Source: Siniperca chuatsi
Lineage: Eukaryota > Chordata > Actinopteri > Centrarchiformes > Sinipercidae
NCBI RefSeq assembly: GCF_020085105.1
Contig: NC_058051.1
Span: 5,316,001-5,380,000 of the forward strand
Direction of reading: 5' to 3'
Length of the DNA: 64,000 bases
Part shown: positions 48,801 to 51,449 of the stretch, one piece after another
How positions within the stretch are numbered: position 1 is the stretch's first letter
How the letters are laid out: each line of letters opens with the position of its first letter
The notes under the pieces: model-generated
Seen by the model: the letters and a program-made list of their open reading frames with translations, nothing else
Database searches by the model: none
What the model was told of the DNA's origin: nothing
Program-made: the position numbers and the translations under genes

Positions 48801-51449
48801 TGAAAGTTCAATAGTGTAGACCGTATGTCGTGTTACATATGGAGCTGCTGTAATTCTACTGGCTAATTAAATTTAAGGCCTTAAAGAAAATGGTGGTTTT
48901 TAAGCTCATTCTCTTTCATGTTCTCTGATTCTCTGCAGTGTCTTGCTGTTTGTAGATGAAGCTGATGCGTTCCTGCGTAAGCGAGCCACAGTGAGTTCAC
49001 CTGCAGTGCCATATGCATGCATGAGGATGCCCTGTGTTTTAATCATATATTCATGAGTCATGATTTTTGCATTGCAGGAGAAAATCAGTGAGGACCTCAG
49101 AGCCACCCTCAATGCATTCCTCTATCGCACTGGGGAGCAGAGCAACAAGTTGGTATCTTCAATTATTCTCTGTGCATGGATGGACATGAAAAGGTCATTG
49201 CCGTGACTGAAAAGGTCACTGACTGGGTCTAAGAAGTCTTATTTTCTCCCCTCAGGTTCATGCTGGTGCTTGCTAGTAACCAGCCAGAACAGTTCGACTG
49301 GGCCATTAATGACCGCATTGATGAGATTGTAAACTTTGCGTTACCAGGTCTGGAGGAGAGAGAAAGATTGGTGCGCCTGTATTTCGACAAATTTGTGCTG
49401 GGTCCTGCCACTACAGGGAGACAGTGAGTACACTTATTGTATTTCAATAACAGCTACTGTTGCTGCTCCGTACCCGAGGTGATTTACTACCACAAAGGAA
49501 AGCATTGGTCCCTAGAGGTCGCCCTGCAAGCTCAAGTTGCATAATGGTGTATCTAATGTGTTCAGTCCTGAAACCAAAGTGGTGTCTGAGTCTTTACTTA
49601 TTGCTTTCATGAAATGGTGTTTAAGAATTCAGGAAGTGCAGTACGGAAGCTGTTGAGTGCATTGGTCAGTTGACACCAGAAAATGTACAGATGATCAATG
49701 ATAAGAAACAAGGTAAAGGCTCACTTACTGTACATACGTCTTGTGCTTTAACTCAACAGGAGATTAAAGTTGGCTCAGTTCGACTATGGCCTGAAGTGTT
49801 CAGACATCGCAAAGCGAGCAGAAGGCATGTCTGGTCGTGAAATCTCCAAACTTGGTGTGGCCTGGCAGGTGAGTAGAAAAGCCTGTTGACACAAAATATG
49901 AATCTGCTTAGAAACAAATCCAAAGCCAATCTTTTATTAAATTTGTTTTTCCTGGAAGGCTGCGGCATACTCTTCTGAAGATGGAGTTTTGACCGAAGTG
50001 ATGATTGACGCAAGAGTAGATGATGCCATCAAGCAGCATGCACAGAAAATGGACTGGCTGCTGATGGAAGCAGGTGCGGGGCTTGGCAAGGTTGGCATAC
50101 TCCTCCCTAAGGAAATGGCTGCAGGAGTCACAGCCCAGGAAGCTGCTTCACTTGCACAAACTGAAGATACGACTCTGACCATGCCACCAGTCCTTCCACT
50201 CCTCGAGGTTATGAGCAACGCTGCCCAGGCAGAAGCAGCCACTCTACCTTCAGAAGTGGAGGCAGAAGTTATCCTCAAAGAGGCTGCCACATTGGTTAAA
50301 CAAAGCAAAGTTGTTGCTGGGACAACTGTAGGAACAGTTGAAACCATTGTTGAGAAAACCACTGCTGTCCCGTTGGTACAGGACGTTGAGGCGACCAAGA
50401 ACCTGACTGAGGAGGTTCTAGGCACAGCTGTAGCTACAGACATTGTTGTTCCTGAGGTGAAGGACATAGTCACTGAGATTAAAGAGGGTATACCAACTTC
50501 CACCATCCAAGAAACTGCTGCTGTGAGTAAAGAAGAGCCAACTACTGGTGCAGCTGCGCAAGAGACTGAGGCCACAGAAGTAGTCAAGGAGGAAAAGGAT
50601 GTTGTAGCACACTTGGAAACAACAGTCTCTGTTGTTGCTCAGGAGACGGAATCGGACGCCGTTGTATCTAATGTTGTACAGGAGCCAGAGGCTACAGTAG
50701 TCGAACTCTCCCAGGAAACTGAGTCAGCAGCCACATCTATTGGTGGTGTAGAAACTGAAGCCACTAAGAGTGCTGAGGAAGTAGCAACTGACGCTGCAAA
50801 GGTTGCAGAGGAAATTGCAAACAATGTAGCTCAAGTGACTGAGTCCTTGGTAAACATTGTAAAAGAGACTGAAGCAATAGCAACTGATGTGGCCAAGGTG
50901 GCTGATGCCGTAGCAACCATCACTGAGGAGATGGAGACAGGAGTCACCAAGGAGGTTGAAGCGATGGAAAATGATGGCATCAAGGATGCAAATGAGGTTG
51001 TAGTGAAAACTGAGTCTGAAACATCAGAGGTTACTAAAGAGGTTGAAGTGGTAGTGACAGATGTGGTCAAGGAGTCTGAGAGTATTGCTAAAGAGGTTGT
51101 TAAGGAGGTTGAACCTGCAATGACTGAGACTGCTACCAAGGAAGCTGAAGTCATCCCACCAGAGCCTCAGATGACTGCCATTGCTGCCAAGGAAGCTGAG
51201 GCCAAAACAACAAAGGCTGCAGAGGAGGTAGAGGCTGTAGTAACAGCTGTTTCCAACATAGAAACCAAGATTGATACAGAGACTGTTGTGTCAGAACAGT
51301 CTGAGAAACTTGAGAGTCAGACGTCAGCTGCCTCTCAGACTCCCAGCACCGAAGAAGCTGAACCCAGTCAAACCGAGGAGCCTCTTTCGAACAAACAGAG
51401 TGGAGATGACGACGGCAAACCACAAGCTAAGTCTAGTCCAACGAAATGA
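42881..51449 (+). CDS. atad3: Mitochondrial AAA+ ATPase ATAD3 with long acidic C-terminal extension, 16 exons
   Basis: Exons: 42881-43076, 43940-44016, 44125-44226, 44346-44405, 44480-44549, 46162-46327, 46502-46571, 46721-46876, 47632-47688, 47853-47978, 48599-48723, 48939-48990, 49078-49148, 49256-49423, 49760-49868 and 49959-51449. Phases close to 3096 nt, 1031 aa. In order: the conserved MSWLFG start and [20 protein letters not shown]; a long coiled coil (about 60-235); a membrane segment at about 247-264 ([12 protein letters not shown]); Walker A GPPGTGKT at 349-356; Walker B VDEAD at 407-411; and the AAA+ lid with [24 protein letters not shown]3 spans the inner mitochondrial membrane with its ATPase in the matrix and helps organise nucleoids, cristae and cholesterol/ER contacts. 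The family normally ends soon after residue 570. Here exon 16 adds about 460 residues rich in E, A, V, T and K with repeated KEVE/KEAE motifs. Human has ATAD3A/B/C paralogues; only one copy is seen here. Confidence 0.95.
44640..44770 (+). repeat. Possible dispersed repeat fragment
   Basis: The AAGATGCAATAAGTAGGATT block followed by a GGGTCAATAAGGTTG stretch resembles short non-coding repeats common in fish introns. Only one copy was seen here, so the call is weak. Confidence 0.3.
45120..45720 (+). repeat. Dispersed repeat C, copy 2
   Basis: The longer copy of the element at 34175-34490, in ATAD3 intron 5. It begins AGCTGCACTAATCAATATTT and ends GCTGCCCCCAAGTGGCC then GCTGCTTTAAT. Start and end carry short complementary pieces (AGCTGCACTAAT/AATGCTGCTTTAA-like), which hints at a non-autonomous element. 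Confidence 0.65.

What the first reader, a model, noticed from the sequence alone, without database searches (positions are those of the whole stretch)
50065..51449. ATAD3 carries a ~460-residue acidic repetitive C-terminal extension
The last ATAD3 exon (49959-51449) stays open for 497 codons, whereas ATAD3 proteins I know end shortly after the KMDWL-type segment (about residue 570 here). The extra part is rich in E, A, V, T and K. It has repeated units such as TKEVE, VKEVE, TKEAE and AKEAE, and a repeated ATDxAKVAxxxA segment, suggesting growth by internal duplication. Topology known for the family would place this tail in the mitochondrial matrix next to the AAA+ ring. It could act as a flexible acidic tether, an amphipathic lipid- or nucleoid-associated segment, or be a lineage-specific addition.
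Basis: partly seen in the sequence, partly recalled or inferred. Interest (0 to 1): 0.7.

Follow-up and report, generated by a model that had tools for sequence, protein, structure and literature searches.

The report
Long acidic helical tail on ATAD3
A mitochondrial protein, ATAD3, in what looks like a fish genome carries an extra 462-residue tail that reads as real coding sequence and whose middle is patterned like one very long two-faced helix: an unusual variation on a known protein, still to be checked in other fish.

Summary
A 16-exon ATAD3 gene model (42881-51449, +) gives 1031 residues, 462 of them (570-1031; 50061-51446) beyond KMDWL. The tail reads as coding: 0 in-frame stops against 25.3 expected (0 of 5000 simulations), with a strong three-base rhythm that is gone after the stop. 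It lacks R, F, W, Y and C and has net charge -62. No Pfam match reaches cut-off and no PDB chain matches.

The signal sits in 780-969, which includes most of a 142-residue proline-free run. So the middle is probably a long acidic amphipathic helix. Internal duplication is only partly supported; lipid binding is not favoured. My leading mechanism, inferred, is a docking or self-association helix displayed by the AAA+ ring.

Not tested: spread among fish, expression, fold. No fish collection was on hand; structure prediction and own-genome search stayed busy. Shorter C-terminal extensions of ATAD3B (62 residues) and Plasmodium ATAD3 (about 100) are in print.

The parts
42881..49868 (+). ATAD3 exons 1-15: 42881-43076, 43940-44016, 44125-44226, 44346-44405, 44480-44549, 46162-46327, 46502-46571, 46721-46876, 47632-47688, 47853-47978, 48599-48723, 48939-48990, 49078-49148, 49256-49423, 49760-49868; residues 1-535
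   Evidence: exon 9/10 border 47688/47853 chosen by me over the script's 47692/47857 for the better donor; Pfam ATAD3_N and AAA
49959..51449 (+). Exon 16: residues 536-1031 and stop codon
49959..50060 (+). End of the conserved ATAD3 body, up to KMDWL (residues 536-569)
50061..50687 (+). Proximal tail, residues 570-778: 10 prolines, no helical period of its own
   Evidence: 570-779 best period reached by 366 of 1000 shuffles
50688..51113 (+). Longest proline-free run, residues 779-920 (142 residues), amphipathic helix pattern
50691..51260 (+). Region of strongest 3.62-residue period, residues 780-969
51261..51446 (+). Distal tail, residues 970-1031, disordered by charge-hydropathy
50074..50075 (+). 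GT of a donor-like site CAG|GTGCGG inside exon 16, just past the KMDWL segment (possible short isoform)
52169..52178 (+). Overlapping AATAAA polyadenylation-type signals downstream of the stop

Best explanation
The tail is a genuine translated C-terminal extension of ATAD3. Shown here: it is open, in frame, coding by base rhythm, strongly acidic, and its middle is patterned as a straight amphipathic alpha-helix (142 residues without proline, about 21 nm if fully helical). Inferred: ATAD3's AAA+ core is placed in the mitochondrial matrix by the literature, so each subunit of the ring would hold out a proline-bearing spacer, then the long helix, then a disordered acidic end. The helix has a V/A/T face almost free of charge, E on both flanks and K on the back. 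I think it most likely works as a protein-protein helix: copies brought together by the ring bundle with each other, or dock onto a basic partner in the matrix, which would tether or cluster ATAD3 with nucleoid or inner-membrane machinery. The partner is a guess; TFAM is one candidate, since the ATAD3A ATPase domain is reported to bind it.
For: Coding. Helical lags 7, 11, 18, 29, 40, 51. Period 3.61 in the whole tail (6 of 2000 shuffles reach it; 0 of 1000) and 3.62 in 780-969 (0 of 2000 and 0 of 1000; this sub-region was chosen after a first look). Mean helical moment 0.248 against 0.174, sd 0.014, in 500 shuffles. In 780-969 the best period between 2.05 and 12 residues is 3.62, and the 11/k harmonics other than 3.67 carry no excess. 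Hydrophobic third of the fitted wheel of 780-920: 3 charged of 46, against 43 of 95 elsewhere. 18-residue fit 0 of 1000 shuffles. Matrix position of the ATPase core and TFAM binding: PMC10419812, passages.
Against: No fold was predicted (structure tool busy). The amino acids of 780-969 are only middling helix formers (mean cost 0.48, against 0.35 for ATAD3's own 70-225 and 0.51 for the AAA part). Heptad fit not significant (217 of 1000) and hendecad fit weak (45 of 1000), so a coiled coil is not shown. E on both flanks of the face would repel in a like-with-like bundle. The proximal and distal parts show no helical period (366 and 903 of 1000). Topology is not settled in print: one review puts the ATAD3B C-terminus in the intermembrane space (PMC12765899, passages). 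No transcript, peptide or orthologue seen.
Confidence: 0.45

Rival explanations
1. The middle of the tail is a lipid-binding 11-residue-repeat amphipathic helix, like those of perilipins, synuclein and apolipoproteins, lying on the matrix side of the inner membrane.
For: 11-residue lag and helical moment; weakly hydrophobic face without aromatic residues, which is also the general chemistry of the perilipin-4 helix as I recall it; perilipin-4, CCT-alpha and synuclein are described as having 11-mer repeats (PMC5889406, passages).
Against: Only 6 of 445 18-residue windows reach the HeliQuest-type limit (recalled rule), mean window charge -2.5. 34 acidic to 12 basic residues in 795-930, facing a cardiolipin-rich, negative membrane (recalled). 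E at both interfaces and K behind is the reverse of the class A layout as I recall it. The perilipin-4 helix region has pI 9.56. Best period 3.62, not 3.67.
Confidence: 0.15
2. The tail is a largely unstructured, entropic acidic spacer or bristle; its repeats are by-products of old 33-nt duplications and composition.
For: Low-complexity make-up and net -62; same-codon excess at lag 11 over the whole tail, 2 of 1000; no helical period in the proximal and distal parts; beta-branched V and T are common.
Against: Period 3.61-3.62 and lags that are not multiples of 11; no same-codon excess in 780-969, where the helical signal is strongest; charge-hydropathy puts the proximal and middle parts on the folded side.
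Confidence: 0.25
3. The usual product is a short isoform: the donor-like site after base 50073 is spliced to a downstream exon, and the tail is a minor or unspliced form.
For: The site scores 8.0 and lies where ATAD3 proteins usually end (recalled); only 2 of the 15 donors of the model score higher (recalled weight matrix).
Against: 6 acceptor-like sites between 50101 and 54000 reach the lower quartile of the gene's own acceptors; joined to this donor, five give 1-13 further residues and one (53304) stays open for at least the 40 residues shown, with nothing recognisable. The tail's coding rhythm and helix pattern would be unexplained.
Confidence: 0.1
4. The long exon is an assembly error or a merger with a neighbouring gene's exon.
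For: No read or transcript data; composition of third codon positions differs from the body (GC3 0.405 against 0.564).
Against: No sequence break is visible; the frame is continuous from conserved ATAD3 residues; the coding rhythm runs on without a gap; the next gene found, TMEM240, is on the other strand.
Confidence: 0.05

Closest known systems
ATAD3 / ATAD3A (mitochondrial AAA+ ATPase)
   Same: ATAD3_N and AAA domains over residues 37-283 and 345-471; 16 exons fit a recalled human protein; TMEM240 next door (human neighbourhood recalled)
   Different: 462 residues beyond the point where the recalled human protein has about 14
Human ATAD3B C-terminal extension
   Same: An ATAD3 with residues added after the usual end; 62 residues by change of the stop codon (PMC11599198, passages)
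   Different: Far longer; no W, F or Y in the tail, so no LC3-binding motif of the usual W/F/Y-x-x-L/I/V form (recalled) can lie in it
Plasmodium ATAD3 C-terminal extension
   Same: C-terminal extension, about 100 residues, function unknown (PMC13249166, passages)
   Different: Length; sequences not compared here
Perilipin-4 and other 11-mer amphipathic helices
   Same: Very long helix pattern with an 11-residue lag (PMC5889406, passages; here)
   Different: Acidic, not basic; degenerate rather than near-identical repeats; E flanks the hydrophobic face

Membership tests
ATAD3 | ATAD3_N domain | tested here: met
   PF12037, E 8.7e-106, residues 37-283
ATAD3 | AAA ATPase domain | tested here: met
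   PF00004, E 3.5e-22, residues 345-471; GPPGTGKT and [11 protein letters not shown] read by eye
ATAD3 | Gene neighbour TMEM240 as in man | tested here: met
   PF15207 in two exons on the minus strand, E 3.7e-44 and 9.8e-23; human order recalled
ATAD3 | Protein in mitochondrial membranes, ring assembly | not testable with these tools
   needs experiment
11-mer lipid-binding amphipathic helix (perilipin/synuclein/apolipoprotein kind) | 11-residue lag and helical amphipathicity | tested here: met
   lag 11 z 4.8 in the whole tail, 0 of 1000 shuffles reach it
11-mer lipid-binding amphipathic helix (perilipin/synuclein/apolipoprotein kind) | Charge and moment fit for lipid binding | tested here: not met
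   6 of 445 windows by a recalled HeliQuest-type rule; E at the interfaces
Coiled coil | Significant heptad or hendecad hydrophobic register in 780-969 | tested here: inconclusive
   heptad 217 of 1000, hendecad 45 of 1000, 18-residue fit 0 of 1000
ATAD3B-type mitophagy receptor tail | LC3-interacting motif with an aromatic residue in the extension | tested here: not met
   no W, F or Y among 462 residues; motif form recalled
A tail shared by fish ATAD3 genes | Presence in related species | not testable with these tools
   no fish collection; exon 16 found no confirmed relative in genome contigs, viral contigs or plasmids, which says nothing about fish

The most novel reading that the evidence does not exclude
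In this lineage the ATAD3 ring carries a matrix-side stalk of several long acidic helices, about 20 nm, that acts as a built-in spacer or docking mast between the inner membrane and nucleoids or another large matrix machine, something mammalian ATAD3 lacks.
Probability: 0.12. Interest if true: 0.7.

Novelty: new variant of a known kind. Interest (0 to 1): 0.42.

Why it matters
ATAD3 is disease-linked and its mechanism is unclear. A lineage that adds a long helix-patterned element next to the AAA+ core is a natural experiment on what that side of the protein touches. It would matter most if a whole clade keeps the tail and its helix phase; if the tail is a private oddity of one species it matters little.

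Tried and rejected
Families and relatives: the tail's best Pfam lines are a suprabasin repeat (E 0.15) and a baculovirus envelope protein C-terminus (E 0.31), both far below cut-off; PDB none at E up to 10. For the body, 270 PDB sequences match, best 60 shown, Cdc48/p97-type ATPases at the top and none of the 60 named ATAD3. Exon 16 in genome contigs (52 pattern matches, none confirmed), viral contigs (11, none confirmed) and plasmids (no match). Rfam on the window: 0 matches.

Antisense frame 49937-50638 (233 codons) was set aside as a shadow of the coding frame; the three antisense frames of the tail hold 8, 6 and 27 stops.

Repeat-pair substitution counts (23 pairs, pooled pS 0.556, pN 0.322; random tail windows 0.744 and 0.658) are weak evidence, because the pairs were picked by similarity. 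By codon position, lags 11 and 40 stand out at position 2, 18 and 51 at position 1, and none of these at position 3; but the finer same-codon test did find an excess at lag 11 over the whole tail, so I do not claim that duplication is absent. All 19 spacings between DNA repeat copies are multiples of three and 5 of 19 are multiples of 33 (recounted); in-frame spacing alone could follow from codon structure.

Two scripts failed: assertion; rewritten; time limit; rewritten.

Papers: 10 searches, 8 of them with an ATAD3 term. Listings were partial for (25 of 528; 10 of 5,933; 8 of 951, none of the 8 holding ATAD3; 8 of 9; 12 of 23), and full for 24 (9), 47 (4) and 50 (8). No title or abstract start listed describes a long ATAD3 tail in fish. 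I read passages only (no whole paper) of PMC11599198, PMC12001410, PMC13249166, PMC12765899, PMC5889406, PMC10419812, PMC3790746 and PMC8042885. The zebrafish paper (PMC12001410) calls zebrafish Atad3 highly similar to ATAD3A and ATAD3B in sequence and domains and gives no length in the passages seen; this leans against a fish-wide tail, but I could not check.

Full report
Gene. A tblastn guide (human ATAD3A, recalled) and a GT/AG-constrained fit give 16 exons on the + strand from 42881 to 51449, CDS 3096 nt, 1031 residues, no internal stop. The 569-residue body holds ATAD3_N (E 8.7e-106) and AAA (E 3.5e-22). TMEM240 lies downstream on the minus strand in two matching stretches, which is the human neighbour of ATAD3A as I recall it. 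ATAD3 outside primates is described as a single gene (PMC3790746, passages).

The tail reads as coding. From 50061 to 51446 there are 462 codons with no stop, against 25.3 expected; none of 5000 simulated sequences lacked one. The three-base rhythm is strong (chi-square 338.8; simulated maximum 20.6 of 1000), present in each of the six 231-base blocks from 49959 to 51344 (34.0 to 80.8), and under 8 in the five blocks after that, the first of which is part tail and part 3' side. Third positions are poorer in G+C than in the body (0.405 against 0.564; introns 0.365).

Make-up. E, V, A, T and K are 305 of 462 residues. R, F, W, Y and C are absent, while the body has 51 R to 39 K. With the tail's own positional base composition, 7.3 R, 3.7 Y and 2.7 F would be expected. 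No known family reaches cut-off and no solved structure matches.

Pattern. Residues resemble each other more than in shuffles at separations of 7, 11, 18, 29, 40 and 51 (also 58, 61 and 72). Those separations, 61 apart, bring residues to about the same side of an alpha-helix. A Fourier scan of hydrophobicity over the whole tail peaks at 3.61 residues; 6 of 2000 shuffles reach that power and 0 of 1000 in a second run. In 780-969, a region chosen after a first look, the peak is 3.62 with 0 of 2000 and 0 of 1000. Within it, the harmonics of 11 other than 3.67 carry no excess, so the period is not just the echo of a repeated 11-mer. The local phase for 36-residue windows starting at 759 to 957 drifts within about 165 degrees. 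The longest proline-free run is 142 residues, 779-920. On the wheel fitted to 780-920 the hydrophobic third holds 3 charged residues of 46, the rest 43 of 95; E lies on both flanks and 8 K share the 40 degrees at the back. Controls in the same protein: residues 70-225, the N-terminal helical stretch, show no period (970 of 1000 shuffles), the AAA part a weak one (65 of 1000), the proximal and distal tail none (366 and 903 of 1000).

Against a helix: the residues of 780-969 are only middling helix formers, worse than 70-225 (0.48 against 0.35), and no structure model could be had.

Duplication. Degenerate DNA repeats (61-89% identity to their reference copies) are all spaced by multiples of three, 5 of 19 by multiples of 33. 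Same-codon use at lag 11 exceeds expectation over the whole tail (39 of 76 against 28.2; 2 of 1000) but not in 780-969 (20 of 44 against 17.5). Old 33-nt duplications probably contributed; the helix pattern of the middle looks selected.

Mechanism. Reviews place the ATPase core in the matrix and report that it binds TFAM (PMC10419812, passages) and predict a hexameric ring (PMC11599198, passages); another puts the ATAD3B C-terminus in the intermembrane space (PMC12765899, passages). The tail follows the core directly. The charge layout argues against lipid binding, heptad and hendecad fits do not establish a coiled coil, and no aromatic residue is there for an ATAD3B-like LC3 motif. I favour a protein-docking or self-association helix on a spacer, at moderate confidence; everything after 'helix-patterned' is inference.

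Short isoform. A donor-like site after base 50073 scores above 13 of the gene's 15 donors, but no scored acceptor up to 54000 gives an evident coding end. RNA would settle it.

Limits and novelty. No transcript, peptide, orthologue or fold model was obtained. C-terminal extensions of ATAD3 are in print for human ATAD3B (62 residues; PMC11599198) and Plasmodium (about 100; PMC13249166), so the kind is known. The length and the helix patterning are, as far as the partly listed searches show, not described. Annotated fish proteins in databases that I could not search may already carry it.

Noticed in passing
54030-54326 and 62217-62612, minus strand: Two TMEM240 stretches (PF15207, E 9.8e-23 and 3.7e-44), downstream of ATAD3 and convergent with it; conserved neighbourhood with man as recalled.
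   Followed up: partly
26283-26603 (also 24155-24475 and 12719-13141), minus strand: E1-E2 ATPase match (E 3e-08) in the first; all three look to me like a P5B-type ATPase such as ATP13A2 (recalled); the other two had no Pfam match.
   Followed up: partly
5532-5966, plus strand: SUZ domain (E 2.2e-14), probably an SZRD1 exon (name recalled).
   Followed up: partly
18566-18892 and 62762-62974, minus strand: Below-cut-off matches to reverse transcriptase (E 0.00012) and a DDE transposase (E 0.00065): probable remnants of mobile elements.
   Followed up: partly
50061-51446: No arginine in 462 residues with 33 lysines; 7.3 expected from the tail's own positional base composition. Unexplained.
   Followed up: partly
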